Shown in pieces: positions 3,661 to 64,000 of a stretch of 64,000 bases of DNA. The notes below the pieces were generated by a model, which saw nothing but the letters and a program-made list of their open reading frames with translations, had not been told where the DNA came from and did not search any database. The stretch's first letter is position 1. Every line of letters starts with the position of its first letter. Source of the DNA: Tenrec ecaudatus (lineage: Eukaryota > Chordata > Mammalia > Afrosoricida > Tenrecidae); assembly GCF_050624435.1 (NCBI RefSeq), contig NW_027459225.1, positions 1 to 64,000 of the forward strand. Reading direction: 5' to 3'. Both the position numbers and the translations under genes were made by a program.

Positions 3661-3662
3661 TC

Positions 3663-8235: not shown

Positions 8236-8259
8236 GCTACAGAAAACAATAAAGAAACA

Positions 8260-9765: not shown

Positions 9766-9774
9766 TTTGATAAA

Positions 9775-11737: not shown

Positions 11738-11760
11738 TACATCCAGGAGAGAGCTTTGAT

Positions 11761-12231: not shown

Positions 12232-12277
12232 CTCACTGCATTCCAGTCAATACCGACTCATAGCGATCCTGTGGTTG
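12232..12277 (-). mobile_element. AfroSINE 3' fragment truncated by the 39-bp satellite
   Basis: 'ctcactgcattccagtcaat' followed by 'accgactcatagcgatcctg' is the reverse complement of the AfroSINE 3' end. The SINE should continue to the right for about another 150 bp, but the GC-rich tandem array takes over after 'tgtggttggg'. The rest of the SINE is not visible in the window. Confidence 0.75.
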
Positions 12278-15200
12278 GGCGCCCAGCCCTAAGGCCTAGG
12301 GAGATCCAGGCCTGGGGCACTCCAGCCCATAGTCTTAGGGAGCGCCAGGCCTGGGGCGTCCCAGCCCTTAGGTTTTGGGAGCCCTAGGCCTGGGGCGCCT
12401 CTTCCCTTAGACTTAGGGAACCTCTGGCCTGGGGCGCCACAGCCCTTTGTCTTAGGAAGCCCAAGGCCTGGGGCGCCCCAACCCTTAGGCTTTGGGAGCC
12501 CCAGGCCTGGGGCGCCCCAGCCCTTAGGCTTTGGGCGCCAGGTCTGGGTCGCCCCAGCCCTTAGGCTTTGGGAGCTCCAGGCCTGTGGCACCCCAGCCCT
12601 TATGCTTTGGGAGCCCCAGGCCTAGGAGCACCCAGCTCTTCGGCTTAGGGAGCCCCAGACCTGGGCGTCACAGCCCTTCGGCTTAGGGAGCTCCAGTCCT
12701 GGGGCGCCCCCGCCCTTAGGTTTAGGGAGCCCCAGGCCTGGGGCGCCCCAGCCCTTAGGCTTTGGGAGCCCCTGGCCGGGGCGCCCAGTCCTTAGGTTTT
12801 GGGAGCCCCAGGCCTGGGGCGCCCCAGCGCTTAGGTTTTGGGAGCCCCAGGCCTGGGGCGCCCCAGCCCTTAGGCTTAGGGTGCCCCAGGCCTGGGGGCA
12901 CCCAGCCCTTCGGCTTAGGGAGCCCCAGGCCTGGGGCGTCCCAGCCCTTAGGCTTAGGGAGCCTATGGCCTGGGACACCCCAGCCCTTAGGCTTTGGGAG
13001 CCCCAGGCCAGGTACGCCCCAGCCCTTAGGATTAGGGACCCCTTGTCCTGGGGCGCCCAAGCCTTTAGGCTTTGTGAGCCCCAGGCCTGGTACGCCCCAG
13101 ACCTTAGGATTAGGGACCCCCTGGCCTGGGGCACCACAGCCCTCAGGCTTTGGGTGCCCCAGACCTAGGGCGCACCAGCCCTTCGGCTTAGGGAGCCCCA
13201 GGCCTGGGTCGCCCCAGCCGTTAGGCTTAGGGAGCTTCTGGCCTGGGGCGCCACAGCCCTTTTTCTTAGGGAGCCCCAGGCCTGGGGCGCCCCAACCCGT
13301 AGGCTTTGAGAGCCCCAGGCCTGGGGCGCCCCAGCTGTTAGGTTTAGGGAGCCACCTGCCTGGGGCCCCCCAGCCCTTAGGCTTTGGGAGCCCCAGGCCG
13401 GGGTGCCCCAGCCCTTAGGCTTAGGGAACCCCATGCCTGGGCGTACCAGCCCTTCGGGTAGGGAGACCCAGGCCTGGGGCGCCCCCGCCCTTAGGTTTAG
13501 GGAGCCACTGGCCTGGGGCGCCCCAGCCCTTAGGCTTTGGGAGCCCCAAGCCGGGGTGCCCGAGCCCTTAGGCTTAGGGAGCCCCAGGCCTGGGGCATCC
13601 CTGCCCTTAGGCTTAGGGAGTCCCAGGCCTGGGGCACCCCAGCCCTTAGGCTTTGGAAGCCACAGGCCTGGTACGCCCCAGCCTTTTGGCTTAGGGAGCC
13701 CCTGACCAGGGGCGCCCCAGCACTTAGGCTTTGGGAGCCCCAGGCCTGGGGCGCCCCTGCCCTTGGCTTAGGGAGCCCCAGGCCTCGGGTGCCCCAGCCC
13801 TTAGGCTTAGGGAGCCCCAGGCCTGGGTCGCCCCAGCCCTTAGGCTTATGGAGCCCCAGTCCTGGTACGTCCCAGCCCTTAGTCTTAGGGAGCCCCAGGC
13901 CTTGGGCGCCCCAGCCCTTAGGCTTTTGGAGCCCCAGGCTGGGACGCCCCAACCCATAGGATATGGGAGCCCCAGACCTGGGGCGCCCAGCCCTTAGGCT
14001 TTGGGAGCCCCAGGCTTGGGGCGCCCAACTCTTAGGCTTTTGGAGCCACAGGCCTGGGGCGCCCCAGCCCTTAGGCTTATGGAGCCCAGGCCTGGGAGGA
14101 CCCAGCTCTTCGGCTTAGGGAGCCCCAGGCCTGGGGCATCCCTGCCCTTAGGCTTAGAGAGCCCCAGGCTCGGGGCGCCACAGCCCTTCGGCTTTGGAAG
14201 TCCCAGACCTAGGCGCCCCAGACCTTAGGCTTTGGGAGTCCCAGGCCTGGTACGCCCCAGCCCTTAGGCTTAGGGAGCACCTGGCGTGGGGCGCCCCAGC
14301 CATTAGGCTTCGGAGCCCCAGGCCTGGGGCGTCCCAGCCCTTAGGTTTTGGGAGCCCTAGGCCTGGGGCGCCTCTTCCCTTAGGCTTAGGGAACCTCTGG
14401 CCTGGGGCGCCACAGCCCTTTGTCTTAGGAAGCCCAAGGCCTGGGGCGCCCCAACCCTTAGGCTTTGGGAGCCCCAGGCCTGGGGCGCCCCAGCCCTTAG
14501 GCTTTGGGCGCCAGGTCTGGGTCGCCCCAGCCCTTAGGCTTTGGGAGCTCCAGGCCTGTGGCACCCCAGCCCTTATGCTTTGGGAGCCCCAGGCCTAGGA
14601 GCACCCAGCTCTTCGGCTTAGGGAGCCCCAGACCTGGGCGTCACAGCCCTTCGGCTTAGGGAGCTCCAGTCCTGGGGCGCCCCCGCCCTTAGGTTTAGGG
14701 AGCCCCAGGCCTGGGGCGCCCCAGCCCTTAGGCTTTGGGAGCCCCTGGCCGGGGCGCCCAGTCCTTAGGTTTTGGGAGCCCCAGGCCTGGGGCGCCCCAG
14801 CGCTTAGGTTTTGGGAGCCCCAGGCCTGGGGCGCCCCAGCCCTTAGGCTTAGGGTGCCCCAGGCCTGGGGGCACCCAGCCCTTCGGCTTAGGGAGCCCCA
14901 GGCCTGGGGCGTCCCAGCCCTTAGGCTTAGGGAGCCTATGGCCTGGGACACCCCAGCCCTTAGGCTTTGGGAGCCCCAGGCCAGGTACGCCCCAGCCCTT
15001 AGGATTAGGGACCCCTTGTCCTGGGGCGCCCAAGCCTTTAGGCTTTGTGAGCCCCAGGCCTGGTACGCCCCAGACCTTAGGATTAGGGACCCCCTGGCCT
15101 GGGGCACCACAGCCCTCAGGCTTTGGGTGCCCCAGACCTAGGGCGCACCAGCCCTTCGGCTTAGGGAGCCCCAGGCCTGGGTCGCCCCAGCCGTTAGGCT

Positions 15201-18200
15201 TAGGGAGCTTCTGGCCTGGGGCGCCACAGCCCTTTTTCTTAGGGAGCCCCAGGCCTGGGGCGCCCCAACCCGTAGGCTTTGAGAGCCCCAGGCCTGGGGC
15301 GCCCCAGCTGTTAGGTTTAGGGAGCCACCTGCCTGGGGCCCCCCAGCCCTTAGGCTTTGGGAGCCCCAGGCCGGGGTGCCCCAGCCCTTAGGCTTAGGGA
15401 ACCCCATGCCTGGGCGTACCAGCCCTTCGGGTAGGGAGACCCAGGCCTGGGGCGCCCCCGCCCTTAGGTTTAGGGAGCCACTGGCCTGGGGCGCCCCAGC
15501 CCTTAGGCTTTGGGAGCCCCAAGCCGGGGTGCCCGAGCCCTTAGGCTTAGGGAGCCCCAGGCCTGGGGCATCCCTGCCCTTAGGCTTAGGGAGTCCCAGG
15601 CCTGGGGCACCCCAGCCCTTAGGCTTTGGAAGCCACAGGCCTGGTACGCCCCAGCCTTTTGGCTTAGGGAGCCCCTGACCAGGGGCGCCCCAGCACTTAG
15701 GCTTTGGGAGCCCCAGGCCTGGGGCGCCCCTGCCCTTGGCTTAGGGAGCCCCAGGCCTCGGGTGCCCCAGCCCTTAGGCTTAGGGAGCCCCAGGCCTGGG
15801 TCGCCCCAGCCCTTAGGCTTATGGAGCCCCAGTCCTGGTACGTCCCAGCCCTTAGTCTTAGGGAGCCCCAGGCCTTGGGCGCCCCAGCCCTTAGGCTTTT
15901 GGAGCCCCAGGCTGGGACGCCCCAACCCATAGGATATGGGAGCCCCAGACCTGGGGCGCCCAGCCCTTAGGCTTTGGGAGCCCCAGGCTTGGGGCGCCCA
16001 ACTCTTAGGCTTTTGGAGCCACAGGCCTGGGGCGCCCCAGCCCTTAGGCTTATGGAGCCCAGGCCTGGGAGGACCCAGCTCTTCGGCTTAGGGAGCCCCA
16101 GGCCTGGGGCATCCCTGCCCTTAGGCTTAGAGAGCCCCAGGCTCGGGGCGCCACAGCCCTTCGGCTTTGGAAGTCCCAGACCTAGGCGCCCCAGACCTTA
16201 GGCTTTGGGAGTCCCAGGCCTGGTACGCCCCAGCCCTTAGGCTTAGGGAGCACCTGGCGTGGGGCGCCCCAGCCATTAGGCTTCGGAGCCCCAGGCCTGG
16301 GGCGTCCCAGCCCTTAGGTTTTGGGAGCCCTAGGCCTGGGGCGCCTCTTCCCTTAGGCTTAGGGAACCTCTGGCCTGGGGCGCCACAGCCCTTTGTCTTA
16401 GGAAGCCCAAGGCCTGGGGCGCCCCAACCCTTAGGCTTTGGGAGCCCCAGGCCTGGGGCGCCCCAGCCCTTAGGCTTTGGGCGCCAGGTCTGGGTCGCCC
16501 CAGCCCTTAGGCTTTGGGTGCTCCAGGCCTGTGGCACCCCAGCCCTTATGCTTTGGGAGCCCCAGGCCTAGGAGCACCCAGCTCTTCGGCTTAGGGAGCC
16601 CCAGACCTGGGCGTCACAGCCCTTCGGCTTAGGGAGCTCCAGTCCTGGGGCGCCCCCGCCCTTAGGTTTAGGGAGCCCCAGGCCTGGGGCGCCCCAGCCC
16701 TTAGGCTTTGGGAGCCCCTGGCCGGGGCGCCCAGTCCTTAGGTTTTGGGAGCCCCAGGCCTGGGGCGCCCCAGCGCTTAGGTTTTGGGAGCCCCAGGCCT
16801 GGGGCGCCCCAGCCCTTAGGCTTAGGGTGCCCCAGGCCTGGGGGCACCCAGCCCTTCGGCTTAGGGAGCCCCAGGCCTGGGGCGTCCCAGCCCTTAGGCT
16901 TAGGGAGCCTATGGCCTGGGACACCCCAGCCCTTAGGCTTTGGGAGCCCCAGGCCAGGTACGCCCCAGCCCTTAGGATTAGGGACCCCTTTTCCTGGGGC
17001 GCCCAAGCCTTTAGGCTTTGTGAGCCCCAGGCCTGGTACGCCCCAGACCTTAGGATTAGGGACCCCCTGGCCTGGGGCACCACAGCCCTCAGGCTTTGGG
17101 TGCCCCAGACCTAGGGCGCACCAGCCCTTCGGCTTAGGGAGCCCCTGGCCTGGGGCGCCCCAGCCCTTAGACTTTGGGAGCCCCAGGCCGGGGGTGCCCC
17201 AGCCGTTAGGCTTTGGGAGCTCAAGCCTGGTGCGACCCAGCCCTTAGGTTTTGGGATCCAAAGCCTGGGGCGCCCCAGCCCTTGGGCTTTGGGAGCCCCA
17301 GGCCTGGGGTGCCCCAGCCCTTAGGCTTTGGAAGCCCCAGGCATGGGGCGCCCCAACCCTTAGGATTTGGGAGCCCCAGACTGGGACGCCCCAGCCCATA
17401 GGTTTTGGGAGCCCCAGGCCTGGGGCTCCCAGCCCTTAGGGTTTGAGAGCCCAAGGCTTGGGGCGCCCCAGCTTTTAGGCTTTGGGACCCACAGGCCTGG
17501 GGCTCCCCAGCGCTTAGGCATAGGGAGCCCCAGGCCTGGGGGCGCCCAGCCCTTCGGCTTAGGGAGCCCCAGGCCTGGGGCTCCCCAGCGCTTAGGCATA
17601 GGGAGCCCCAGGCCTGGGGCACGCCAGCCCTTAGGCTTTGGGAGTCCCAGGCCTGGGGCGCCCCAGCCCTTTGGCTTTGTGAGCCACAGGCCTAGAGCGC
17701 CCCAGCCCTTAGGCTTAGGGAGCCCCTGACCTGGGGCGCCCTAGCACTTAGGCTTTAGGAGCCCCAGGGCTGAGGCGCCCCAGCCTTAGGTTTTGTGAGC
17801 CCTAGGCCTGGGGCGCCCCTGCCCTTGGCTTTGGGAGCCCCAGGCCTGGGGTGCCCAGGGCCTTAGGCTTAGGGAGCCCCAGGCCTGGGTCGCCCCAGCC
17901 GTTAGGCTTAGGGAGCTTCTGGCCTGGGGCGCCACAGCCCTTTTTCTTAGGGAGCCCCAGGCCTGGGGCGCCCCAACCCGTAGGCTTTGAGAGCCCCAGG
18001 CCTGGGGCGCCCCAGCTGTTAGGTTTAGGGAGCCACCTGCCTGGGGCCCCCCAGCCCTTAGGCTTTGGGAGGCCCAGGCCGGGGTGCCCCAGCCCTTAGG
18101 CTTAGGGAACCCCATGCCTGGGCGTACCAGCCCTTCGGGTAGGGAGACCCAGGCCTGGGGCGCCCCCGCCCTTAGGTTTAGGGAGCCACTGGCCTGGGGC

Positions 18201-20850
18201 GCCCCAACCCTTAGGCTTTGGGAGCCCCAAGCCGGGGTGCCCGAGCCCTTAGGCTTAGGGAGCCCCAGGCCTGGGGCATCCCTGCCCTTAGGCTTAGGGA
18301 GTCCCAGGCCTGGGGCACCCCAGCCCTTAGGCTTTGGAAGCCACAGGCCTGGTACGCCCCAGCCTTTTGGCTTAGGGAGCCCCTGACCTGGGGCGCCCCA
18401 GCACTTAGGCTTTGGGAGCCCCAGGCCTGAGGCGCCCCTGCCCTTGGCTTAGGGAGCCCCAGGCCTTGGGTGCCCCAGCCCTTAGGCTTAGGGAGCCCCA
18501 GGCCTGGGTCGCCCCAGCCCTTAGGCTTATGGAGCCCCAGTCCTGGTACGTCCCAGCCCTTAGTCTTAGGGAGCCCCAGGCCTTGGGCGCCCCAGCCCTT
18601 AGGCTTAGGGAACCCCATGCCTGGGCGTACCAGCCCTTCGGGTAGGGAGACCCAGGCCTGGGGCGCCCCCGCCCTTAGGTTTAGGGAGCCACTGGCCTGG
18701 GTCGCCCAGCCCTTAGGCTTTGGGAGCCCCAGGCTTGGGGCGCCCAACTCTTAGGCTTTTGGAGCCACAGGCCTGGGGCGCCCCAGCCCTTAGGCTTATG
18801 GAGCCCCAGGCCTGGGAGGACCCAGCTCTTCGGCTTAGGGAGCCCCAGGCCTGGGGCGTCCCTGCCCTTAGGCTTAGAGAGCCCCAGGCTCGGGGCGCCA
18901 CAGCCCTTAGGCTTTGGAAGTCCCAGACCTAGGCGCCCCAGACCTTAGGCTTTGGGAGTCCCAGGCCTGGTACGCCCCAGCCCTTAGGCTTAGGGAGCAC
19001 CTGGCGTGGGGCGCCTCAGCCATTAGGCTTCGGAGCCCCAGGCCTGGGGCGTCCCAGCCCTTAGGTTTTGGGAGCCCTAGGCCTGGGGCGCCTCTTCCCT
19101 TAGGCTTAGGGAACCTCTGGCCTGGGGCGCCACAGCCCTTTGTCTTAGGAAGCCCAAGGCCTGGGGCGCCCCAACCCTTAGGCTTTGGGAGCCCCAGACC
19201 TGGGGCGCCCCAGCCCTTAGGCTTTGGGCGCCAGGTCTGGGTCGCCCCAGCCCTTAGGCTTTGGGAGCTCCAGGCCTGTGGCACCCCAGCCCTTATGCTT
19301 TGGGAGCCCCAGGCCTAGGAGCACCCAGCTCTTCGGCTTAGGGAGCCCCAGACCTTGGCGTCACAGCCCTTCGGCTTAGGGAGCCCCAGTCCTGGGGCGC
19401 CCCCGCCCTTAGGTTTAGGGAGCCCCAGGCCTGGGGCGCCCCAGCCCTTAGGCTTTGGGAGCCCCTGGCCGGGGCGCCCAGTCCTTAGGTTTTGGGAGCC
19501 CCAGGCCTGGGGCGCCCCAGCGCTTAGGTTTTGGGAGCCCCAGGCCTGGGGCGCCCCAGCCCTTAGGCTTAGGGTGCCCCAGGCCTGGGGGCACCCAGCC
19601 CTTCGGCTTAGGGAGCCCCAGGCCTGGGGCGTCCCAGCCCTTAGGCTTAGGGAGCCTATGGCCTGGGACACCCCAGCCCTTAGGCTTTGGGAGCCCCAGG
19701 CCGGGTACGACCCAGCCCTTAGGATTAGGGACCCCTTGTCCTGGGGCGCCCAAGCCTTTAGGCTTTGTGAGCCCCAGGCCTGGTACGCCCCAGACCTTAG
19801 GATTAGGGACCCCCTGGCCTGGGGCACCACAGCCCTCAGGCTTTGGGTGCCCCAGACCTAGGGCGCACCAGCCCTTCGGCTTAGGGAGCCCCTGGCCTGG
19901 GGCGCCCCAGCCCTTAGACTTTGGGAGCCCCAGGCCAGCGGTGCCCCAGCCGTTAGGCTTTGGGAGCTCAAGCCTGGTGCGACCCAGCCCTTAGGTTTTG
20001 GGATCCAAAGCCTGGGGCGCCCCAGCCCTTGGGCTTTGGGAGCCCCAGGCCTGGGGTGCCCCAGCCCTTAGGCTTTGGAAGCCCCAGGCATGGGGCGCCC
20101 CAACCCTTAGGATTTGGGAGCCCCAGACTGGGACGCCCCAGCCCATAGGTTTTGGGAGCCCCAGGCCTGGGGCTCCCAGCCCTTAGGGTTTGAGAGCCCA
20201 AGGCTTGGGGCGCCCCAGCTTTTAGGCTTTGGGACCCACAGGCCTGGGGCTCCCCAGCGCTTAGGCATAGGGAGCCCCAGGCCTGGGGGCGCCCAGCCCT
20301 TCGGCTTAGGGAGCCCCAGGCCTGGGGCTCCCCAGCGCTTAGGCATAGGGAGCCCCAGGCCTGGGGCACGCCAGCCCTTAGGCTTTGGGAGTCCCAGGCC
20401 TGGGGCGCCCCAGCCCTTTGGCTTTGTGAGCCACAGGCCTAGAGCGCCCCAGCCCTTAGGCTTAGGGAGCCCCTGACCTGGGGCGCCCTAGCACTTAGGC
20501 TTTAGGAGCCCCAGGGCTGAGGCGCCCCAGCCTTAGGTTTTGTGAGCCCTAGGCCTGGGGCGCCCCTGCCCTTGGCTTTGGGAGCCCCAGGCCTGGGGTA
20601 CCCAGGGCCTTAGGCTTAGGGAGCCCCAGGCCTGGGTCGCCCCAGCCGTTAGGCTTAGGGAGCTTCTGGCCTGGGGCGCCACAGCCCTTTTTCTTAGGGA
20701 GCCCCAGGCCTGGGGCGCCCCAACCCGTAGGCTTTGAGAGCCCCAGGCCTGGGGCGCCCCAGCTGTTAGGTTTAGGGAGCCACCTGCCTGGGGCCCCCCA
20801 GCCCTTAGGCTTTGGGAGCCCCAGGCCGGGGTGCCCCAGCCCTTAGGCTT
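12278..20850. repeat. Satellite zone A1: higher-order repeat of 1973 and 2747 bp
   Basis: Blocks of dozens of distinguishable monomers recur almost unchanged. Using one landmark block, units begin at 12622, 14595 and 16568 (period exactly 1973 bp twice), then at 19315 (2747 bp). Landmarks across the whole unit keep the 1973-bp offset between the first two copies, including 12755/14728, 13165/15138, 13530/15503 and 14154/16127. The longer unit carries roughly 0.74 kb of extra monomers (about 17140-17875) that the short units lack, plus smaller differences near 18600-18710. The last unit passes into zone B1 near 20850. Confidence 0.9.
14595..16567. repeat. Representative 1973-bp higher-order unit of zone A
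   Basis: This unit of about 50 monomers matches the preceding one (12622-14594) almost base for base over the parts I compared. Adjacent monomers inside the unit differ from each other at several positions. That contrast, high between units and low within, defines a higher-order repeat and implies recent amplification of the whole block. Confidence 0.85.
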
Positions 20851-23800
20851 AGGGTGCGACAGACCTAGGGCGCCCCAGCCCTCAGGCTTTGGGAGCCCCA
20901 GGCCTGGGGCACGCCAGCCCTTAGGATTTGCGAGCCCCAGGCCTGGGGTGCCCCAGCCCTTCGGCTTAGGGAGCCCCAACTCGGGGGCGCCCCAGCCGTT
21001 AGGCTTTGGCAGCCCAAGCCTGGTACGACCCAGCCCTTAGGTTTTGGGAGCCAAAGCCTGGGACGCCCTAGCCCTTAGGCTTTTGGAGCCCCAGGTCTGG
21101 GGCGCCCCAACCCTTAGGCTTTGGAAGCCCCAGGCCTGGGGCTCCCCAGCCCTTAGGCTTTGGGAGCCCCAGGCCTGGTATGCTCCAGCCCTAAGGCTAA
21201 GGGAGCCCCAGGCCTTAGGCTTACGGAGCCCCTGGCCTGGGGCGCCCCAGCCCTTAGACTTTGGGAGCCCCTGGCCTGGGGCGCCCCACCCCTTAGACTT
21301 TGGGAGCCCCAGGCCAGGGGCGCCCCAGCCCTTAGGCTTTGGGAGCTCCAGGCCTGGGGCGCCCCCGCCCTTAGGCTTTGGGAGCCCCAGGCGTGGGGCT
21401 CCCCAGCCCTTAGGCTTTGGGAGCCCCATGCCTGGTATGCCCTAGCCCTTAGGCTTTTGGAGCCCCAGGCCAGCGGCGCCCCAGCCCTTAGGCTTTGGGA
21501 GCTCCAGGCCTGGGGTGCCCCAGCCCTTAAGATTTGGGAGCCCCAGGCTGGGACGCCCCAGCCCTTCGGCTTAGGGCGCGACAGACCTCGGGCGCCCCAT
21601 CCCTCAGGTTTTGGGAGCCCCAGGCCTGTGGCACGCCAGCCCTTAGGCTTTGGGAGTCCCAGGCCTGGGGCGCCCAAGCCCTTAGGCTTTGGGAGCCCCA
21701 GGTCAGGTACACCCCAGCCCTTAGGCTTACGGAGCCGCAGGCCTGGGGCACCACAGCCCTTAGGCTTTGGGCGCCCCAACCTAGGGCGCCCCAGCCCTTC
21801 GGCTTAGGCAGCCCCTGGCCTGGGGCGCCCCATCCCTTAGTCTTTGGGCGCCCCAGGCCGGGGGCGCCCCAGCCGTTAGGCTTTGGGAGCCCAAGCCTGG
21901 TGCGACACAGCCCTTAGGTTTTGGGAGCCCCAGGCCTGGGGCGCCCCAACCCTTAGGATTTGGGAGCCCAAGGCTGGGACGCCCCAGCCCATAGGTTTTG
22001 GGAGACCCAGGCCTGGGGCGCCCAGCCCTTAGGGTTTGAGAGCCCCAGGCTTGGGGCGCCCAAGCTCTTAGTCTTTGAGAGCCACAGGCCTGGGGCGCCC
22101 CAGCGCTTACGCTTAGGGAGCCCCAGGCCTGGGGGCACCCAGTCCTGCGGCTTAGGGAGTCCCAGGCCTGGGGCGTCCCAGCCCTTAGGCTTAGGGAGCC
22201 CCAGGCCTGGGGCGCCCCAGCCCTTCGGCTTAGGGTGCGACAGACCTAGGGCGCCCCAGCCCTCAGTCTTTGGGAGCCCCAGGCCTGGGGCACGCCAGCC
22301 CTTAGGCTGTGGGAGTCCCAGGCCTGGGGCGCCCAAGCCCTTAGGCTTTGGGAGCCCCATGCCTGGGGCGCCCCCGCCCTTAGGATTTGGGAGTCCCAGG
22401 CCTATGGCGCCCCAGCCCTTTGGCTTAGGGAGCCCCTGGCCTGGGGCGTCCCAGCCCTTAGGATTTGGGAGCCCCAGCCCGGGGGCTCCCCAGCCGTTAG
22501 GCTTTGGCAGCCGAAGCCTGGTGCGACCCAGCCCTTAGGTTTTGGGAGCCAAAGCCTGGGGCGCCCTAGCCTTTAGGCTTTGGAAGCCCCAGGCCTGAGG
22601 CGCCCCAACCCTTAGGATTTGGGAGCCCCAGGCTGGGACGCCCCAGCCCATAGGGTTTGGGAGCCCCAAGCCTGGGGCACCGAGCCCTTAGGCTTTGAGA
22701 GCCCCAGGCCAGGGGCGTCCCAGTCCTTAGGCTTAGGGAGCCCCAGGCCTGGGGCGCACCAGCCCTTATGCTGAGGGAGCCCATGGACAGGGACACCCCA
22801 GCCTTTCGGATTAGGGCACGCCAGGCCTCGGGCGCCCCAACCCTTAGGCTTTGGGAGCCCCAGGCCTGGTATGCCCCAGCCCTTAGGCTTAGGGAGCCCC
22901 AGGCCTTAGGCTTAGGGAGCCCCTGGCCTTAGGCTTAGGGAGCCCCTGGCCTGGGGCGCCCCAGCCCTTAGATTTTGGGAGCCCCAGGCCTGGGGCGCCC
23001 AGCTCTTCGGCTTAGGGAGCCCCAGGCCAGGGGCGTCCCAGTCCTTAGGCTTAGGGAGCCCCAGGCCTGGGGCGCACCAGCCCTTATGCTGAGGGAGCCC
23101 ATGGACAGGGACACCCCAGCCTTTCGGATTAGGGCACGCCAGGCCTAGGGCGCCCCAACCCTTAGGCTTTGGGAGCCCCAGGCCTGGTATGCCCCAGCCC
23201 TTAGGCTTAGGGAGCCCCAGGCCTTAGGCTTAGGGAGCCCCTGGCCTGGGGCGCCCCAGCCCTTAGATTTTGGGAGCCCCTTGCCTGGGGCGCCCCAGCC
23301 CTTAGACTTTGGGAGCCCCAAGACAGGGGCGCCCCAGCCCTTAGGCTTTGGGAGCTCCAGGCCTGGGGCGCCCCAGCCCTTAGGCTTTGGGAGCTCCAGG
23401 CCTGGGGCGCCCCAGGCCTTAGTCTTTGGGAGCCCCTGGTCTGGGGCGCCTTAACACTTAGGCTTTGGGAGCCCCACGCCGGGGCGCCCCAGCCCTTAGG
23501 TTTTGTGAGCCCTAGGCCTGGGGCGTCCCTGCCCTTAGGCTTTGGGAGCCCCAGGCCTGGGGCGCCCCAGCCCTTAGGCTTATGGAGACCCCGGCCGGGG
23601 TCGCCCCAGCCCTTCGGCTTTGGTAGCCCCAGGCCCTGGGCGCCCCAGCGCTTAGGCTTTGGGAGGCCCAGTCCTGGGGCGTCGCAGCCCTTAGGATTAG
23701 GGAGCCCCTGGCCTCGGGGCACCCAGCCCTTAGGTTTAGGGAGCCCCAGGCCTGAGGCGTCCCAGCACTTAGGCTTAGGGCGCCCCAGGCCTGATACGCC

Positions 23801-26800: not shown

Positions 26801-27044
26801 CCTAAGGCTTAGGGAGCCCCAGGCGTGTGGCGCCCCAGCCGTTAGGTATTGGGTTTCCCAGACCTGGGGCCCCCCAACCCTTAAGTTTTGGGAGCCCCAA
26901 GCCTGGACGCCCCAGCCCTTAGGCTTTGGGAGCCCCTGGACTGGGGCGCCCAAGCCCTTAGGCTTTGGGAGCCCCAATCCTGGGTTGCCCCAGCCCTTAG
27001 GCTTTGGGAGCCCCAGGCCTGGGACACCCCAGCCCTTAGGCTTA

Positions 27045-36000: not shown

Positions 36001-36720
36001 CCCAGCCCTTAGGCTTTGGGAGCCCCAGGCCTGGGGCGCCCCAGCCATTAGGCTTAGGGAGCCCATGGCCTGGGACGCCCCAGCCCTTCGGCTTAGGGCG
36101 CGACAGTCCTAGGGTGCCCCAGCCCTTCGGCATAGGGAGCCCCAGACCTGGTACGCCCCAGCCCTTAGGCGTAGGGAGCCCCAGATCTGGGGCGCCCCAG
36201 CCCTTAGCCTGGAAGCCCTAGCCCTGGGGCACCCCAGCCCTTAGGCTTTGGGAGCCCAAGCCCAGGGCGCCCCAGCACTTAGTCTTTGGAAGTCCAAGGC
36301 CTGGGGCGCCCCAGCCCTTAGGCTTAGGTAGCCCAAGCCCTGGGGCACCCCAGCTCTTAGGCTTTGGGAGCCCCAGGCATGGGGCGCCCCAGCTCTTAGG
36401 CTTTGGGAGCACCAGTCTTGGGGTGCCCCAGCCCTTAGGCTTTGGAAGGCCCAGGTCTGCGGCCCCCCCAGCCCTTAGGTTTTGGGAGTCCCAGGCCTGG
36501 GGCGCCCTGCCCTTAGGCTTAGGAAGCCCCAGGCCTGGGGCGGCCCTACCTTTAGGCTTAGGGAGCCCCAGCCCTGGGCGCCCCAGCCCTTCCTCTTAAG
36601 TCGCGACAGGCTTAGGTTGCCCCAGGTCTTGGGCTTTGGGAGCTCCAGGAATGGGGCACTCCAGCCTTTTGGCTTAGGGAGCCCCAGAACTGGGAAGCAC
36701 CAGCCCTTAGGTTTAGGGAG
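27045..36720. repeat. Tandem duplication of a ~6-kb block in zone B1
   Basis: Landmarks at 27045, 27317, 28081, 28734, 29275, 29826 and 30433 recur at 33363, 33634, 34173, 34748, 35289, 35876 and 36482. The offsets are 6318, 6317, 6092, 6014, 6014, 6050 and 6049. Offset changes of about 225, 78 and 36 bp are close to 6, 2 and 1 monomers, so the two copies differ mainly by whole-monomer gains and losses. Confidence 0.8.
30433..31828. repeat. 698-bp tandem pair in zone B1
   Basis: 30433-31130 is repeated directly at 31131-31828. Both ends and the internal landmarks (for example 30870/31568) keep the 698-bp offset. 698 bp is close to 18 monomers. A further copy of the left portion occurs from 36482. 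Confidence 0.8.
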
Positions 36721-41200: not shown

Positions 41201-41340
41201 ACCAGCCCTTAGACTTTGGGAGCCCCAGGCCTGGGGCACCCCAGCCCTTAGGCTTACAGAGCCCCAGGCCTGGGAAACAGAGCCCTTAGGCTTTGGGTGC
41301 CCCAGGCCTAAAGCGCCCCACCCTTCGGCTTAGGGAGCCC
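38287..41340. repeat. 1547-bp tandem pair in zone B1
   Basis: Landmarks at 38287, 38999, 39553 and 39626 recur at 39835, 40546, 41100 and 41173, an offset of 1547-1548 bp, or about 40 monomers. One internal block differs: the first copy reaches a shared landmark at 38698 and the second at 40168 (offset 1470), showing a two-monomer deletion of about 77 bp. Confidence 0.75.
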
Positions 41341-55200: not shown

Positions 55201-57700
55201 GGCTTAGGGAGCCCCTGACCTGGGGCGCCCTAGCACTTAGGCTTTAGGAGCCCCAGGGCTGAGGCGCCCCAGCCTTAGGTTTTGTGAGCCCTAGGCCTGG
55301 GGCGCCCCTGCCCTTGGCTTTGGGAGCCCCAGGCCTGGGGTGCCCAGGGCCTTAGGCTTAGGGAGCCCCAGGCCTGGGTCGCCCCAGCCGTTAGGCTTAG
55401 GGAGCTTCTGGCCTGGGGCGCCACAGCCCTTTTTCTTAGGGAGCCCCAGGCCTGGGGCGCCCCAACCCGTAGGCTTTGAGAGCCCCAGGCCTGGGGCGCC
55501 CCAGCTGTTAGGTTTAGGGAGCCACCTGCCTGGGGCCCCCCAGCCCTTAGGCTTTGGGAGCCCCAGGCCGGGGTGCCCCAGCCCTTAGGCTTAGGGAACC
55601 CCATGCCTGGGCGTACCAGCCCTTCGGGTAGGGAGACCCAGGCCTGGGGCGCCCCCGCCCTTAGGTTTAGGGAGCCACTGGCCTGGGGCGCCCCAGCCCT
55701 TAGGCTTTGGGAGCCCCAAGCCGGGGTGCCCGAGCCCTTAGGCTTAGGGAGCCCCAGGCCTGGGGCATCCCTGCCCTTAGGCTTAGGGAGTCCCAGGCCT
55801 GGGGCACCCCAGCCCTTAGGCTTTGGAAGCCACAGGCCTGGTACGCCCCAGCCTTTTGGCTGAGGGAGCCCCTGACCTGGGGCGCCCCAGCACTTAGGCT
55901 TTGGGAGCCCCAGGCCTGGGGCGCCCCTGCCCTTGGCTTAGGGAGCCCCAGGCCTCGGGTGCCCCAGCCCTTAGGCTTAGGGAGCCCCAGGCCTGGGGCG
56001 CCCCCGCCCTTAGGTTTAGGGAGCCACTGGCCTGGGGCGCCCCAGCCCTTAGGCTTTGGGAGCCCCAAGCCGGTGTGCCCGAGCCCTTAGGCTTTGGGAG
56101 CCCCAGGCCTGGGGCGCCCCAGCGCTTATGCTTTGGGAGCCCCAGGCCTGGGGCTCCCCATTCCTTAGGCTTAGGGAGCCCTAGGCCTGAGGACACCCAG
56201 CCCTTCGGCTTAGGGAGCCCCAGGCCTAGGGCGCCGCAGCCCTTATTCTTAGGGAGCCCCAGTCCTGGTACGGCCCAGCCCTTAGGCTTAGGGAGCCCCA
56301 GGCCTTGGGCGCCACAGCCCTTAGGCTTTTGGGGCCCCAGGCTGGGACGCTCCAGCCCATAGGTTTTGGGAGCCCCAGGCCTGGGGCGCCCAGCCCTTAG
56401 GCTTAGGGAGCCCCAGGCTCGGGGCGCCCCAGCCCTTAGGCTTTGGGAGTTCCAGACCAAGGCGCCACAGCCCTTAGGTTGGGAGTCCCAGGCCTGGTAC
56501 GCCCCAGCCCTTAGGCTTAGGGAGCACCTGGCCTGGGGCGCCCCAGCCCTTAGGTTTTGGGAGCCCCAGACCTGGGGCTCCACAGCCCTTAGGCTTAGGG
56601 ATCCTCTGGCCTTGGGCGCCACAGCCCTTTGTCTTAGGAAGCCTAAGGCCTGGGGCGCCCCAGCCCTTAGGCTTTGGGTGCCCCAGGCCTGGGGCGCCAC
56701 AGCCCTTAGGCTTTGGGAGCTCCAGGCCTGTGGCGCCCCAGCCCTTAGGCTTATGGAGCCCCAGTCCTGGTACGTCCCAGCCCTTAGTCTTAGGGAGCCC
56801 CAGGCCTTGGGCGCCCCAGCCCTTAGGCTTTGGGAGCCCCAGGCCGGGGTGCCCCAGCCCTTAGGCTTAGGGAACCCCATGCCTGGGCGTACCAGCCCTT
56901 CGGGTAGGGAGACCCAGGCCTGGGGCGCCCCCGCCCTTAGGTTTAGGGAGCCACTGGCCTGGGGCGCCCCAGCCCTTAGGCTTTGGGAGCCCCAAGCCGG
57001 GGTGCCCGAGCCCTTAGGCTTTGGGAGCCCCAGCCCTGGGGCGCCCCAGCGCTTATGCTTTGGGAGCCCCAGGCCTGGGGCTCCCCATTCCTTAGGCTTA
57101 GGGAGCCCTAGGCCTGAGGACACCCAGCCCTTCGGCTTAGGGAGCCCCAGGCCTAGGGCGCCGCAGCCCTTATTCTTAGGGAGCCCCAGTCCTGGTACGG
57201 CCCAGCCCTTAGGCTTAGGGAGCCCCAGGCCTTGGGCGCCACAGCCCTTAGGCTTTTGGGGCCCCAGGCTGGGACGCTCCAGCCCATAGGTTTTGGGAGC
57301 CCCAGGCTTGGGGCGCCCAGCCCTTAGGCTTAGGGAGCCCCAGGCTCGGGGCGCCCCAGCCCTTAGGCTTTGGGAGTTCCAGACCAAGGCGCCACAGCCC
57401 TTAGGTTGGGAGTCCCAGGCCTGGTACGCCCCAGCCCTTAGGCTTAGGGAGCACCTGGCCTGGGGCGCCCCAGCCCTTAGGTTTTGGGAGCCCCAGGCCT
57501 GGGGCTCCACAGCCCTTAGGCTTAGGGATCCTCTGGCCTTGGGCGCCACAGCCCTTTGTCTTAGGAAGCCCAAGGCCTGGGGCGCCCCAGCCCTTAGGCT
57601 TTGGGTGCCCCAGGCCTGGGGCGCCACAGCCCTTAGGCTTTGGGAGCTCCAGGCCTGTGGCACCCCAGCCCTTATGCTTTGAGAGCCCCATGCCTAGGGA
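43280..57700. repeat. Satellite zone A2: second block of the A-type higher-order repeat
   Basis: The A-type monomer order returns after 22 kb. A landmark falling at 13137, 15110, 17083 and 19830 in A1 falls at 44087, 46757, 49462, 52171 and 54572 here, giving periods of 2670, 2705, 2709 and 2401 bp. The 2401-bp unit lacks about 308 bp (eight monomers) near 53050. The 49462 unit has a single-base deletion near 49003. A 5-monomer duplication of about 194 bp occurs at 43443-43830. The right end, 55980-57700, is a 927-bp duplication of mosaic A-type monomers. Confidence 0.85.
55980..57665. repeat. 927-bp tandem duplication at the end of zone A2
   Basis: The block around 56366 recurs at 57293, a 927-bp offset that holds over about 750 bp. 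Because 927 is divisible by three, open frames run straight through both copies. This gives the longest open frame of the window (55894-57663 reverse, 589 codons, with an internal repeat of 309 residues) and a 307-codon forward frame (56366-57289). Both are composed entirely of 13-residue satellite translations. Confidence 0.8.
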
Positions 57701-60343
57701 CACCCAGCCCTTCGGCTTAGGGAGCCCCAGACCGGGCATCACAGTCCTTCGGCTTAGGGAGCCCCAGGCCTGGGGTGCCCCCGCCCTTAGGATTATGGAG
57801 CCCCTGGCCTGGAGCGCCCCAGCCCTTAGGCTTTGGGAGCCCCAGGCCGGTGCTCACCAGCCTTAGGCTTTGGGAGCCCCAGGTCTGGGGCGCCCCAGCG
57901 CTTAGGCTTTGGGAGCCCCAGGCCTGGGGCGCCCCAGCCCTTAGACTTAGGGAGCCCCAGGCCTGGGGTCACCCAGCCCTTCGGCTTAGGGAGCCGCAGG
58001 CCTGGGGCGTCCCAGCCCTTAGGCTTTGGGAGCCCCAGGCCTGGGGCGCCCCAGCCCTTAGGCTTAGGGAGCCTATGGCCTGGGACGCCCCAGCCCTTCG
58101 GCTTAGGGCGCGACAGACCTAGGGCGCCCCAGCCCTTTGGCTTTGGAAGCCCCAGGCCTGTGGCACGCCAGCCCTTAGGCTTTGGGAGTCCCAGGCCTGG
58201 GGCGCTCAAACCCTTAGGCTTTGGGAGCCCCAGGCTGGGACGCCCCAGCCCATAGGTTTTGGGAGCCCCAGGCCTGGGGCCCCCCGCCCTTAGGGTTTGA
58301 GAGCCCCAGGCTTGGGGCGCCCCAGCCCTTAGGCTTTGGGAGCCACAGGCCTGGGGCACCCCAGCGCTTAGGCTAAGGCAGCCCCAGGCCTGGGGGCACC
58401 CAGCCTTTCGGCTTAGGGAGCCCCAGGCCTGGGGCGTCCCAGCCCTTAGGCTTAGGGAGCCCCAGGCCAGATACGCCCCAGCACTTAGGATTAGGGACCC
58501 CCTGGCCTGGGGTGCCCCCGCCCTTAGGATTTGGGAGCTCCAGGCGTGGGGCGCACCAGCCCTTAGGCTTACGGAGCCCCAGGCCTGGGGCACCACAGCC
58601 CTTAGACTTTGGGCGCCCCAGACCTAGTGCGCCCCAGCCCTTCGGCTTAGGGAGCCCCTGGCCTGGGGCGCCCCAGCCCTTAGGATTTGGGAGACCCAGG
58701 CTGGGACGCCACAGCTCTTAGGTTTTGGGAGCCCCAGGCCTGGGGCGCCCAGCCCTTAGTGTTTGAGAGCCCCAGGCTTGGGGCGCCCCAGCTCTTAGGT
58801 TTTGGGAGCCACAGGCCTGGGACGCCCCAGCGCTTAGGCTTAGGGAGGCCCAGGCCTGGGGGCACCCAGCCCTTCGGCTTAGGGAGCCTATAGCCTGGGA
58901 CGCCCCAGCCGTTCGGCTTAGGGTGCGACAGACCTAGGGCGCCCCAGCCCTCAGGATTTGGGAGCCACAGGCCTGGGACGCCACAGCGCTTAGGCTTAGG
59001 GAGCCCCAGGCCTGGGGCCCCCCGCCCTTAGGGTTTGAGAGCCCCAGGCTTGGGGCGCCCCAGCCCTTAGGCTTTGGGAGCCACAGGACTGCGGCACCCC
59101 AGCGCTTAGGCTTAGGCAACCCCAGGCCTGGGGGCACCCAGCCTTTCGGCTTAGGGAGCCCCAGGCCTGGGGCGTCCCAGCCCTTAGGCTGAGGGAGCCT
59201 ATAGCCTGGGATGCCCCAGCCCTTCGGCTTAGGGCGCGACAGACCTTGGGCGCCCCAGCCCTCAGTCTTTGGGAGGCTCAGGCCTGGGGCACGCCAGCCC
59301 TTAAGCTTTGGGAGTCCCAGGCCTGGGGCGCCCAAGCCCTTAGGCTTTGGGAGCCCCAGGCCAGGTACGCCCCAGCCCTTTGGATTAGGGAGCCCCTGGC
59401 CTGGGGGGCCCCAGACCCTAGGTTTTGGGAGCCACAGGCCTGGGGCGCCCCCACCCTTAGGATTTGGGAGCCCCAGGCCTGGGGTGCCCCAGCCCTTAGG
59501 CTTACGGAGCCCCAGGCCTAGGGCGCCACAGCCCTTTGGCTTAGGGAGCCCCTGGCCTGGGGCGTCCCAGCCCTTAGGCTTTGGGAGCCCCAGCCCGGGG
59601 GCGCCCCAGCCGTTAGGCTTTGGCAGCCCAAGCCTGGTGCGACCAAGCCCTTAGGTTTTGGGAGCCAAAGCCTGGGGCGCCCTAGCCCTTTGGCTTTGGG
59701 AGCCCCAGGCCAGATACGCCCCAGCACTTAGGATTAGGGACCCCCTGGCCTGGGGCTCCCCCGCCCTTAGGATTTGGGAGCCCCAGGCCTGGGGCGCACC
59801 AGCCCTTAGGCTTACGGAGCCCCAGGCCTGGGGCACCACAGCCCTTAGACTTTGAGCGCCCCAGACCTAGTGCGCCCCAGCCCTTCGGCTTAGGGAGCCC
59901 CTGGCCTGGGGCGCCCCAGCCCTTAGGCTTTGGGAGCCCCAGGCCAGGTGTTCCCCATACGTTAGGCTTTGGCAGACCAAGCCTGGGCGACCCACCCCTT
60001 AGGTTTTGGGAGCCAAAGCCTGGGGCGTCCCAGCCCTTAGGCTTTGGGAGCCCCAGGCCTGGGGCGGCCCAGCCCTTAGGCTTTGGAAGCCCCAGACCTG
60101 GGGCGCCCCAACCCTTAGGATTTGGGAGCCCCAGGCTGGGACGCCACAGCTCTTAGGTTTTGGGAGCCCCAGGCCTGGGGCGCCCAGCCCTTAGTGTTTG
60201 AGAGCCCCAGGCTTGGGGCGCCCCAGCTCTTAGGTTTTGGGAGCCACAGGCCTGGGACGCCTCAGCGCTTAGGCTTAGGGAGGCCCAGGCCTGGGGGCAC
60301 CCAGCCCTTCGGCTTAGGGAGCCTATAGCCTGGGACGCCCCAG
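57700..60343. repeat. Satellite mosaic between A2 and the B1-like duplicate
   Basis: The monomers here mix A-like order (57826-58100 resembles the HOR core and also 33010-33270) with B-like variants. An internal duplication is visible: a landmark at 58687 recurs at 60122 (offset 1435). No boundary in this zone is sharp. Confidence 0.65.
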
Positions 60344-63300
60344 CCCTTCGGCTTAGGGTGCGACAGACCTAGGGCGCCCCAACCCTCAGGCTTTGGGAGC
60401 CCCAGGCCTGGGGCACGCCAGCCCTTAGGATTTGCGAGCCCCAGGCCTGGGGTGCCCCAGCCCTTCGGCTTAGGGAGCCCCAACTCGGGGGCGCCCCAGC
60501 CGTTAGGCTTTGGCAGCCCAAGCCTGGTACGACCCAGCCCTTAGGTTTTGGGAGCCAAAGCCTGGGACGCCCTAGCCCTTAGGCTTTTGGAGCCCCAGGT
60601 CTGGGGCGCCCCAACCCTTAGGCTTTGGAAGTCCCAGGACTGGGGCTCCCCAGCCCTTAGGCTTTGGGAGCCCCAGGCCTGGTATGCTCCAGCCCTAAGG
60701 CTAAGGGAGCCCCAGGCCTTAGGCTTACGGAGCCCCTGGCCTGGGGCGCCCCAGCCCTTAGACTTTGGGAGCCCCTGGCCTGGGGCGCCCCACCCCTTAG
60801 ACTTTGGAAGCCCCAGGCCAGGGGCGCCCCAGCCCTTAGGCTTTGGGAGCTCCTGGCCTGGGGCGCCCCCGCCCTTAGGCTTTGGGAGCCCCAGGCGTGG
60901 GGCTCCCCAGCCCTTAGGCTTTGGGAGCCCCAGGCCTGGTATGCCCTAGCCCTTAGGCTTTTGGAGCCCCAGGCCAGCGGCGCCCCAGCCCTTAGGCTTT
61001 GGGAGCTCCAGGCCTGGGGTGCCCCAGCCCTTAAGATTTGGGAGCCCCAGGCTGGGACGCCCCAGCCCTTCGGCTTAGGGCGCGACAGACCTCGGGCGCC
61101 CCATCCCTCAGGTTTTGGGAGCCCCAGGCCTGTGGCACGCCAGCCCTTAGGCTTTGGGAGTCCCAGGCCTGGGGCGCCCAAGCCCTTAGGCTTTGGGAGC
61201 CCCAGGTCAGGTACACCCCAGCCCTTAGGCTTACGGAGCCTCAGGCCTGGGGCACCACAGCCGTTAGGCTTTGGGAGCCCAAGCCTGGTGCGACACAGCC
61301 CTTAGGTTTTGGGAGCCCCAGGCCTGGGGCGCCCCAACCCTTAGGATTTAGGAGCCCAAGGCTGGGACGCCCCAGCCCATAGGTTTTGGGAGGCCCAGGC
61401 CTGGGCGCCCAGCCCTTAGGGTTTGAGAGCCCCAGGCTTGGGGCGCACAAGCTCTTAGTCTTTGAGAGCCACAGGCCTGGGGCGCCCCAGCGCTTAGGCT
61501 TAGGGAGCCCCAGGCCTGGGGGCACCCAGCCCTGCGGCTTAGGGAGTCCCAGGCCTGGGGCGTACCAGCCCTTAGGCTTAGGGAGCCCCAGGCCTGGGGC
61601 GCCCCAGCCCTTCTGCTTAGGGTGCGACAGACCTAGGGCGCCCCAGCCCTCAGTCTTTGGGAGCCCCAGGCCTGGGGCACGCCAGCCCTTAGGCTGTGGG
61701 AGTCCCAGGCCTGGGGCGCCCAAGCCCTTAGGCTTTGGGAGCCCCATGCCTGGGGCGCCCCCGCCCTTAGGATTTGGGAGTCCCAGGCCTATGGCGCCCC
61801 AGCCCTTTGGCTTAGGGAGCCCCTGGCCTGGGGCGTCCCAGCCCTTAGGATTTGGGAGCCCCAGCCCGAGGGCTCCCCAGCCGTTAGGCTTTGGCAGCCG
61901 AAGCCTGGTTTGACCCAGCCCTTAGGTTTTGGGAGCCAAAGCCTGGGGCGCCCTAGCCTTTAGGCTTTGGAAGCCCCAGGCCTGAGGCGCCCCAACCCAT
62001 AGGATTTGGGAGCCCCAGGCTGGGACGCCCCAGCCCATAGGTTTTCGAGCCCCAAGCCTGGGGCACCGAGCCCTTAGGCTTTGAGAGCCCCAGGCCAGGG
62101 GCGTCCCTGTCCTTAGGCTTAGGGAGCCCCAGGCCTGGGGCGCACCAGCCCTTATGCTGAGGGAGCCCATGGACAGGGACACCCCAGCCTTTCGGATTAG
62201 GGCACGCCAGGCCTAGGGAGCCCCAACCCTTAGGCTTTGGGAGCCCCAGGCCTGGTATGCCCCAGCCCTTAGGCTTAGGGAGCCCCAGGCCTTAGGCTTA
62301 GGGAGCCCCTGGCCTGGGGCGCCCCAGCCCTTAGATTTTGGGAGCCCCAGGCCTGGGGCGCCCAGCTCTTCGGCTTAGGGAGCCCCAGGCCAGGGGCGTC
62401 CCAGTCCTTAGGCTTAGGGAGCCCCAGGCCTGGGGCGCACCAGCCCTTATGCTGAGGGAGCCCATGGACAGGGACACCCCAGCCTTTCGGATTAGGGCAC
62501 GCCAGGCCTAGGGCGCCCCAACCCTTAGGCTTTGGGAGCCCCAGGCCTGGTATGCCCCAGCCCTTAGGCTTAGGGAGCCCCAGGCCTTAGGCTTAGGGAG
62601 CCCCTGGCCTGGGGCACCCCAGCCCTTAGATTTTGGGAGCCCCTTGCCTGGGGCGCCCCAGCCCTTAGACTTTGGGAGCCCCAAGACAGGGGCGCCCCAG
62701 CCCTTAGGCTTTGGGAGCTCCAGGCCTGGGGCGCCCCAGGCCTTAGGCTTTGGGAGCCCCTGGTCTGGGGCGCCCTAACCCTTAGGCTTTGGGAGCCCCA
62801 CGCCGGGGCGCCCCAGCCCTTAGGTTTTGTGAGCCCTAGGCCTGGGGCGTCCCTGCCCTTAGGCTTTGGGAGCCCCAGGCCTGGGGCGCCCCAGCCCTTA
62901 GGCTTATGGAGACCCCGGCCGGGGTCGCCCCAGCCCTTCGGCTTTAGTAGCCCCAGGCCCTGGGCGCCCCAGCGCTTAGGCTTTGGGAGGCCCAGTCCTG
63001 GGGCGCCGCAGCCCTTAGGATTAGGGAGCCACTGGCCTCGGGGCACCCAGCCCTTAGGTTTAGTGAGCCCCAGGCCTGAGGCGTCCCAGCACTTAGGCTT
63101 AGGGAGCCCCAGGCCTGATACGCCCCAGCCCTTAGTCGTAGGGAGCCCCGGCCTGGGGCACCCCCGCCCTTAGACTTGGGGAGCCCCGGCCTGGGGCGCC
63201 GGCTCCCTTAGGCTTTGGGAGCCCTAGGCCTGGGGTGCCCAAGCCCTTAGGTTTTGGGAGCCCCAGGCCTGAGCGCCCAAGCCTTTAGGCTTTGGGAGCC

Positions 63301-64000
63301 CCAGGGCTGGGGCGCCCCAGCCCTTAGGGTTTGGGAGCCCCAGGTCTGGGGGGCCCCAGCCCTTAGGATTGTGGAGACCCAGGCTGGGACGCCCCAGCCC
63401 ATAGGTTATGGGAGCCCCAAGCCTGCGGCCCCCAGCCCTTAGGCTGTGGGAGGCCCAGGCCTGGTACGCCCCAGCCCTTATGCTTAGGGAGCCCCTGGCC
63501 TGGGGCGCCCGAGCCCTTAGGCTTTGGGAGCCCCTGGCTTGGGGCGCCCGAGCCCTTAGGCTTTGGGAGCCGCAGGCATGGGGAGCCCCAACCCATAGGT
63601 TTAAGGAGCCCTAGGACTGGGGCGCCTCTGCCCTTCGGCTTTCCGCCCCAGCACTTAGGCTTAGGGAGCCCCAGTCCGGGGCGCCCCAGCCCTTAGGCTT
63701 AGGGAGCCTCTGGCCTGGGGCGCCACAGCCCTTTGTTTTAGGGAGCCCCAGGCTTAGGGCACCCCAACCCTTAGGCTTTGGGAGCTCCAGGCTGTGGCGC
63801 CCCAGCCATTAGGTTTTGGGAGCCCCAGGCCTGGGGGCACCCAGGCCTTCGGCTTAGGGAGCCCCAGGCATGGGCGTCCCAGCCCTTCGGCTTTGGGAGC
63901 CCCAGGCCTGGGGCGCCCCAACGCTTAGGCTTTGGGAGCTCCAGGCCTGTGGCGCCCCAGCCATTAGGCTTTGGGAGCCCCAGGCCTGGGGGCACCCAGG
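60344..64000. repeat. Satellite zone B2: duplicate of the start of zone B1
   Basis: The order of variant monomers follows 20840-24617. Landmarks at 20979, 21044, 21160 and 21534 recur at 60483, 60548, 60664 and 61038 (offset 39504). Those at 23505 and 23930 recur at 62829 and 63254 (offset 39324), and one near 24367 recurs near 63750 (offset about 39383). Offset shifts mark internal gains and losses of a few monomers. The copy runs off the right edge. Confidence 0.85.

What the first reader, a model, noticed from the sequence alone, without database searches (positions are those of the whole stretch)
12278..64000. Giant GC-rich 39-bp satellite with several levels of higher-order structure
One 39-bp monomer makes up almost 52 kb without interruption. 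It is organised into HOR units of 698, 1547, 1973, 2401 and 2670-2747 bp, a block of about 6 kb, and zones alternating A-B-A'-B' with an offset of about 39.4 kb between B copies. HOR hierarchies are well known in AT-rich primate alpha satellite. A strongly GC-rich, 39-bp satellite with this depth of hierarchy is not a family I recognise. Some units look nearly identical, which implies recent unequal exchange or block amplification.
Basis: partly seen in the sequence, partly recalled or inferred. Interest (0 to 1): 0.75.

Follow-up and report, generated by a model that had tools for sequence, protein, structure and literature searches.

The report
GC-rich 39-bp satellite in an afrotherian
The 52 kb in the window is part of a large, apparently undescribed GC-rich satellite DNA of an afrotherian mammal, probably from heterochromatin near its centromeres; its layered repeats are real, but a chicken satellite of similar size is built the same way.

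Summary
A 39-bp, 68.5% GC monomer fills 12277-64000 without a break and runs on to the end of its 113-kb contig. The long-range order is real: shuffling monomer order removes it, and a ~2.7-kb spacing recurs on other contigs. Three layers remain: 39 bp, ~2.7 kb, and alternating zones. The assembly holds 237,975 near-consensus hits, control 0, by extrapolation 31-39 Mb, about 1%. One array edge, inside an AfroSINE-like element, recurs at 34 places; a satellite-free version of that site has 743 hits. A near-identical second contig differs by one 1973-bp unit and a 14.4-kb block. Best reading: pericentromeric heterochromatic satellite, grown by unequal exchange and spread with its flanking duplicon; the location is inferred. 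None of my ten literature listings showed a description, but chicken CNM (41 bp, HORs of 26-98 monomers) is a direct precedent.

The parts
1..7311 (.). 470-473-bp tandem repeat; each unit joins a SINE-like segment to a hAT-like element with CAGTGGTTCTCAACC...GGTTGAGAACCACTG ends (element classes recalled)
   Evidence: TRF, 4.8 + 10.8 copies, 69-74% matches; also near the satellite on C1129 and, with period 458, on C410
7326..12276 (+). spacer of a multi-copy duplicon, ending inside an AfroSINE-like element
   Evidence: 97.7-99.98% identical next to the satellite on 6 of 6 other contigs compared, over 1.7-9.8 kb; a satellite-free copy on C727 at 96.9%
12256..12290 (+). junction spacer/satellite (CTGTGG | TTGGGCGCCC)
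   Evidence: 34 places genome-wide at up to 3 mismatches, control 0; the satellite-free 38-mer has 743 hits at up to 3 mismatches, control 0
12277..64000 (+). 39-bp GC-rich satellite array, consensus GGGCGCCCCAGCCCTTAGGCTTTGGGAGCCCCAGGCCTG; continues to contig base 113186
   Evidence: TRF; decomposition; one orientation: 331 hits to the 42-mer on this strand, 0 on the other
12345..20854 (+). zone A: copies of the ~2.7-kb HOR (1973, 1973, 2747 and a partial unit)
20855..43805 (+). zone B: monomers with local block duplications (698, 1547, about 6.0 kb); limits approximate
43806..55997 (+). zone A': same HOR (2706, 2708, 2401 units); left limit approximate
   Evidence: about 99.5% identity between neighbours and 99.3-99.5% to zone A; limits
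55998..64000 (+). start of zone B'; it continues to about 87.8 kb of the contig
   Evidence: five segments matching zone B at 39.3-39.5 kb offset, 98.6-99.8%; zone map

Best explanation
This is the edge of a large, non-coding, GC-rich satellite array of an afrotherian mammal, most likely in pericentromeric heterochromatin. Shown: a 39-bp unit that itself carries a 23+16-bp sub-repeat; a ~70-monomer (2.7-kb) HOR with deletion and insertion variants; HOR-rich zones alternating with other zones; a near-identical second contig differing by one 1973-bp unit and by a 14.4-kb block; one array edge present at 34 places, with the same flanking spacer on all six other contigs where I read it. Inferred: the array began at one insertion or breakpoint inside an AfroSINE-like element of an amplified duplicon; unequal exchange or replication-based tandem duplication makes and homogenises HORs; ectopic exchange among heterochromatic regions carries edge plus array to other chromosomes. 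Inferred role: bulk heterochromatin around centromeres, not a gene and not shown to be a kinetochore site.
For: Genome-wide 120,273 + 117,702 hits to the 42-mer, control 0; at 331 hits per 51.7 kb in the window, 619 per 100.9 kb in the contig and 65 in the 8.5-kb C727 array this extrapolates to 31-39 Mb. Listed places on chromosome-scale contigs (first 100 exact hits, complete lists) fall in one interior span on each of eight: C1 269-292 of 322.6 Mb, C41 127-133 of 206.0, C62 136-141 of 175.4, C65 140 of 167.4, C80 30-63 of 164.0, C91 115-126 of 153.3, C96 79.8 of 142.1, C121 31-39 of 113.1 (lengths). Listed duplicon copies overlap or lie within about 1 Mb of these on C1, C41, C62 and C65. C1129 shows satellite at 9 of 9 500-bp probes from base 1 to 375 kb and in four of four 10-kb pieces (fetched, examined), so its array probably exceeds 500 kb. 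Copy-number differences. HOR anatomy. No Rfam match at gathering scores.
Against: No centromere position is known for this assembly: no CENP-A, Hi-C or FISH data. Only the first 100 of the 237,975 places were listed, so the full distribution was not seen. The C1 and C80 spans are 22 and 33 Mb wide, broad for a pericentromere. No exact hit is listed on 11 of the 19 chromosome-scale contigs whose length I asked. On three of these (C22, C71, C84) the duplicon is present without listed satellite, and C80 has satellite without a listed exact duplicon hit. By extrapolation from exact-hit density most copies lie on small, probably unplaced contigs. No CENP-B box in the window. C1657 and C1129 may be recent duplicates or an assembly error rather than alleles.
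Confidence: 0.62

Rival explanations
1. It is a functional centromeric satellite: the GC-rich, dyad-symmetric 39-bp unit is the DNA on or beside which CENP-A sits, a mammalian counterpart of chicken CNM.
For: Length, HOR size (about 51-70 monomers against 26-98) and dyad symmetry resemble CNM. The canonical CENP-B box has 0 exact hits in the assembly (reversed control 2). PMC7644632 passages say dyad symmetries occur in centromeric satellites that lack CENP-B boxes. Two interstitial TTAGGG tracts lie in the C1 region.
Against: No CENP-A data. Listed exact hits on only 8 of 19 chromosome-scale contigs measured. Compensatory changes in the dyad are fewer than expected (63 v 89.3 over 16 pairs), so the fold is not visibly selected. 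In chicken CENP-A is usually at the CNM boundary, not on its body. The TTAGGG link is weak: three other listed C1 tracts lie outside the region, and the list shows only C1.
Confidence: 0.13
2. Interstitial or arm heterochromatin with no relation to centromeres.
For: Wide spread on C80 (30-63 Mb) and C1 (269-292 Mb); listed exact hits on a subset of chromosomes only.
Against: The listed places form one interior span on each of eight chromosome-scale contigs, near duplicon clusters on four.
Confidence: 0.2
3. The kb-scale periods are assembly artefacts (collapsed or falsely joined repeats).
For: The window lies on a 113-kb contig that part of a 568-kb contig almost duplicates.
Against: Spacings of 2707-2747 bp appear on C1129 and of 2709 bp on C727 and C410. 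HOR copies in A zones differ by 0.7-1.3% substitutions, and length variants share breakpoints.
Confidence: 0.04
4. The array is a coding repeat: frames stay open because 39 bp is 13 codons.
For: 54 ORFs of at least 150 aa in the window, all 54 inside the array, the longest 589 aa.
Against: Long open frames lie on both strands, as period and composition would give; 764 of 2615 monomers are not 39 bp, so frames shift often. No protein search of these frames was made.
Confidence: 0.01

Closest known systems
Chicken CNM 41-bp repeat (PMC9974502: passages and section 8 read; PMC3091757: passages)
   Same: Short unit (41 v 39 bp); HORs of 26-98 monomers (here about 51-70); dyad symmetry is mentioned for CNM; copies diverged yet forming HORs
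   Different: Bird; CENP-A lies at or near CNM boundaries, untested here. Sequences were not compared: I had no CNM letters; its TTTTC/GAAAA motifs (recalled) are absent from our consensus
PO41 41-bp repeat of chicken (PMC3091757, passages)
   Same: 41 bp, G+C-rich (63%), long tandem arrays
   Different: Mostly subtelomeric, one interstitial block; [quoted passage not shown]
Alpha satellite HORs of primates (recalled; primate HORs mentioned in PMC4053949 passages)
   Same: Diverged monomers grouped into HORs, HOR length variants, layered expansion (recalled)
   Different: About 171-bp AT-rich monomer with CENP-B boxes (recalled); here 39 bp, 68.5% GC, no box in the window
TMAsat of manatees (PMC8421680, passages) and the 936-bp elephant repeat (PMC4053949, passages)
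   Same: Afrotherian satellites; TMAsat is about 0.87% of the genome and centromeric by FISH
   Different: TMAsat is 684-687 bp, 54.5% AT, with CENP-B-box-like motifs; the elephant repeat is 936 bp

Membership tests
Satellite DNA (long non-coding tandem array) | Head-to-tail array of many kb, many copies in the genome | tested here: met
   51.7 kb in the window, at least 100.9 kb in the contig; 237,975 near-consensus hits, control 0
HOR satellite | Blocks of diverged monomers repeated as a unit at much higher identity | tested here: met
   Monomers 88% to consensus; ten A-zone units align to the 2747-bp unit at 98.7-99.3%, four B'-zone units at 89.7-94.3%; order lost on shuffling monomers
Pericentromeric satellite | Location beside the centromere | tested here: inconclusive
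   One interior span on each of 8 chromosome-scale contigs among listed places; centromere positions unknown
Centromeric (CENP-A) satellite | CENP-A enrichment | not testable with these tools
   No chromatin data
CENP-B-box satellite (alpha-like) | NTTCGNNNNANNCGGGN in monomers | tested here: not met
   0 in the window, 0.09 expected; exact YTTCGTTGGAARCGGGA 0 in the assembly
CNM family of birds | Sequence similarity to the 41-bp CNM unit | not tested
   No CNM sequence was fetched; resemblance is in organisation only
Afrotherian host | Dispersed AfroSINEs | tested here: met
AfroSINEs as an afrotherian marker: PMC2211313 passages

The most novel reading that the evidence does not exclude
A mammal in which a 39-bp, GC-rich, nearly self-complementary unit has taken the place of the usual longer centromeric satellite and builds alpha-like HORs without CENP-B boxes: an independent mammalian parallel to the avian CNM centromere, and a natural test of the idea that dyad symmetry can stand in for CENP-B binding.
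Probability: 0.13. Interest if true: 0.65.

Novelty: new member of a known kind. Interest (0 to 1): 0.4.

Why it matters
It shows HORs forming on a short, GC-rich unit in a mammal as they do in birds, which suggests that HOR structure follows from the exchange process and not from alpha satellite's longer AT-rich monomer. Two near-identical contigs that differ by one HOR unit and a 14.4-kb block, and an array edge present at 34 places, make the system useful for measuring exchange within and between chromosomes. If a kinetochore were found on it, the mammalian reliance on long satellites with CENP-B boxes would have a clear exception.

Tried and rejected
Compensatory covariation of the dyad: 63 compensatory cells against 89.3 expected under independence over 16 pairs; two pairs lie above expectation (29-3: 22 v 12.8; 33-38: 11 v 9.1), the rest at or below. 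The fold is therefore a property of the consensus, not shown to be maintained.

CpG decay as a methylation clue: among 80 pairs of near-identical stretches CpG transitions are 1.5 times those at other G/C sites (0.0118 v 0.0080), but the pairs are not independent and CpG transversions are oddly high (0.033). Between C1657 and C1129 there are 14 differences in 20.0 kb, about half of it flank, 2 of them at CpG. Too few to conclude.

CENP-B box: none in the window, and none in its exact canonical form in the assembly; the elephant/armadillo variant given in PMC8421680 was asked twice and not answered. Rfam: nothing at gathering scores. Sloth SATCHO1 (117 bp = 3 x 39) was considered and dropped: it is 59% AT. 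A search against Dfam/Repbase was not possible. Abundance of the 470-bp repeat: asked once, not answered. PMC4053949 (passages) reports low tandem-repeat abundance in Sanger reads of one tenrec; if the host were a tenrec (not shown) a 39-bp satellite at about 1% would be hard to square with that, so I draw nothing from it.

Literature: ten searches, of which I saw the listings and starts of abstracts; none of the listed titles or abstract starts describes a 39-bp GC-rich satellite in an afrotherian. The library holds open-licence papers only and lists were capped, so this is not proof of novelty.

Full report
What is in the window. Bases 1-7311 are a 470-473-bp tandem repeat, 7326-12276 a spacer, and 12277-64000 an unbroken array of a 39-bp unit. 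The window is the first 64 kb of contig C1657 of a 3.918-Gb assembly in 2140 contigs. The contig is 113,186 bp long and the array runs to its end. Decomposition gives 2615 monomers, 1851 of exactly 39 bp, mean identity to consensus 88%. The window array is 68.5% GC, bases 1-12276 are 43.9%.

Host. The flank carries AfroSINE-like sequence (name recalled). AfroSINEs mark Afrotheria (PMC2211313, passages). The species is not established.

Monomer. The consensus is GGGCGCCCCAGCCCTTAGGCTTTGGGAGCCCCAGGCCTG. It is a 23+16-bp composite: both parts begin GGG(C/A)GCCCCAG, 10 of 11 bases shared, and the circular consensus matches itself at 23 of 39 positions at offsets 16 and 23. It is nearly its own reverse complement: 30 of 39 positions at the best rotation, reached by 3 of 5000 shuffles. 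A consensus dimer folds as DNA at -34.5 kcal/mol, z -6.6. Three array places, one of them on both strands, give z -2.8 to -4.8; two flank pieces give -0.2 and -1.3. Among 448 distinct 39-bp window monomers the mean self-complement score is 25.0, against 19.8 for one shuffle of each. Compensatory changes are fewer than expected, so selection on the fold is not shown.

Higher order. A 60-bp anchor at 14318 occurs 19 times on the contig at up to 4 mismatches. Of the 15 stretches between successive anchors less than 9 kb apart, one is the 2747-bp reference, ten in A zones align to it at 98.7-99.3%, and four starting in B' align at 89.7-94.3% with many gaps. The A-zone units differ by shared blocks: minus 735 and 38 (1973, twice), minus 308 and 38 (2401), minus 38 (2706, 2708, 2709), minus 114 plus 38 (2671), plus 736 and 465 (3948), plus 1433 and 465 (4645), and these with a further 774 (5419). 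So there is one ~2.7-kb HOR with length variants. Zones: A 12.3-20.9 kb, B to about 43.8, A' to 56.0, B' to about 87.8, A'' to about 109.0, then the start of another B-like stretch. B to B' matches at 39.3-39.5 kb offset run over five segments at 98.6-99.8%, within 20.8-24.6 kb; the rest of B matches at other offsets. Younger events include a 5,419-bp duplication and a 1,973-bp one, both 99.9% identical.

A second contig. C1129 (568 kb) matches the flank at 99.98% over 9,848 bp without gaps; its array pieces match C1657 at 99.7-99.9% where they align. Direct alignment shows that C1129 lacks one 1973-bp unit. A 401-bp probe has 13 hits on C1657, confirmed by a local recount, and 16 on C1129; the tool scored only the best 40 of 7,485 candidates, so the latter is a lower bound. 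On C1129 a set of four hits occurs twice, 14,395 bp apart, where C1657 has it once. The two contigs are alleles, very recent duplicates, or one of them is misassembled. Of the C1129 array I read 40 kb plus nine 500-bp probes from base 1 to 375 kb, nine of nine satellite.

Genome. The 42-mer has 237,975 hits at up to 3 mismatches, control 0, about 31-39 Mb if densities elsewhere resemble those read here. Only the first 100 places, all exact and reaching contig C275, were listed. Together with the complete lists they fall, among chromosome-scale contigs, on C1, C41, C62, C65, C80, C91, C96 and C121, one interior span each. C22, C40, C55, C71, C84, C102, C109, C119, C130, C133 and C139 have none listed (lengths); inexact hits there were not listed, so absence is not shown.

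Edges. The left junction has 34 hits, nine of them on C62, C65, C91, C96 and C121. The flank is 97.7-99.98% identical on the six other contigs that I compared. On C727 the array is 8.5 kb with both ends; the spacer recurs beyond it at 96.9% and there continues without satellite. The right junction has two hits, C727 and its near-identical partner C410. The satellite-free site has 743 hits, control 0; its first 100 places lie on C1 276-296 Mb, C22 248-250, C41 127.7, C62 137-140.5, C65 139.3, C71 62.8-63.4, C84 82.3 and smaller contigs. The simplest reading, inferred, is one founding event in an amplified duplicon, then copying of edge plus array.

Known relatives. Chicken CNM, 41 bp, has HORs of 26-98 monomers at acrocentric centromeres, with CENP-A usually at or near the CNM boundary and TTAGGG tracts inside some arrays (PMC9974502, section 8). 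PO41 is 41 bp and 63% GC (PMC3091757, passages). The afrotherian satellites that I met in print are long: TMAsat 684-687 bp (PMC8421680, passages), elephant 936 bp (PMC4053949, passages). In the common tenrec genome paper (PMC13063843: outline, abstract, section 12) a search of the main text for satellite, tandem and centromer found 0 occurrences. The window's satellite looks like a new family of a known kind.

Verdict. Observation confirmed; hierarchy simpler than claimed; precedent in birds; growth by block duplication well supported; location and function inferred.

Noticed in passing
window 1-7311; also C1129 511-516 kb (L022) and C410 907-910 kb (L017): A 470-473-bp tandem repeat whose unit joins a SINE-like segment to a hAT-like element with inverted ends: a tandem repeat made from two transposable elements.
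   Followed up: partly
genome-wide, first 100 places: The empty site of the duplicon has 743 hits; on C62 (three times), C63 and C64 neighbouring hits are inverted pairs 50.8-53.9 kb apart, suggesting a palindromic unit.
   Followed up: partly
C1 288.99 and 289.53 Mb: Interstitial (TTAGGG)n tracts lie inside the same span of C1 as the duplicon and satellite; three other listed tracts on C1 do not.
   Followed up: no
L030 (C1129:250001-250500): This probe has near-consensus monomers in both orientations (3 and 5 hits at up to 8 mismatches), so the long array may contain an inversion point.
   Followed up: no
window 55894-57663, minus strand: A 589-aa open frame inside the array; probably a by-product of a 39-bp period with few stops.
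   Followed up: no
C727 (L014, L015) and C410 (L016, L017): Two contigs each hold an 8.5-kb complete array with both edges and are 99.95% identical over 6.3 kb: probably haplotypes of one locus.
   Followed up: partly
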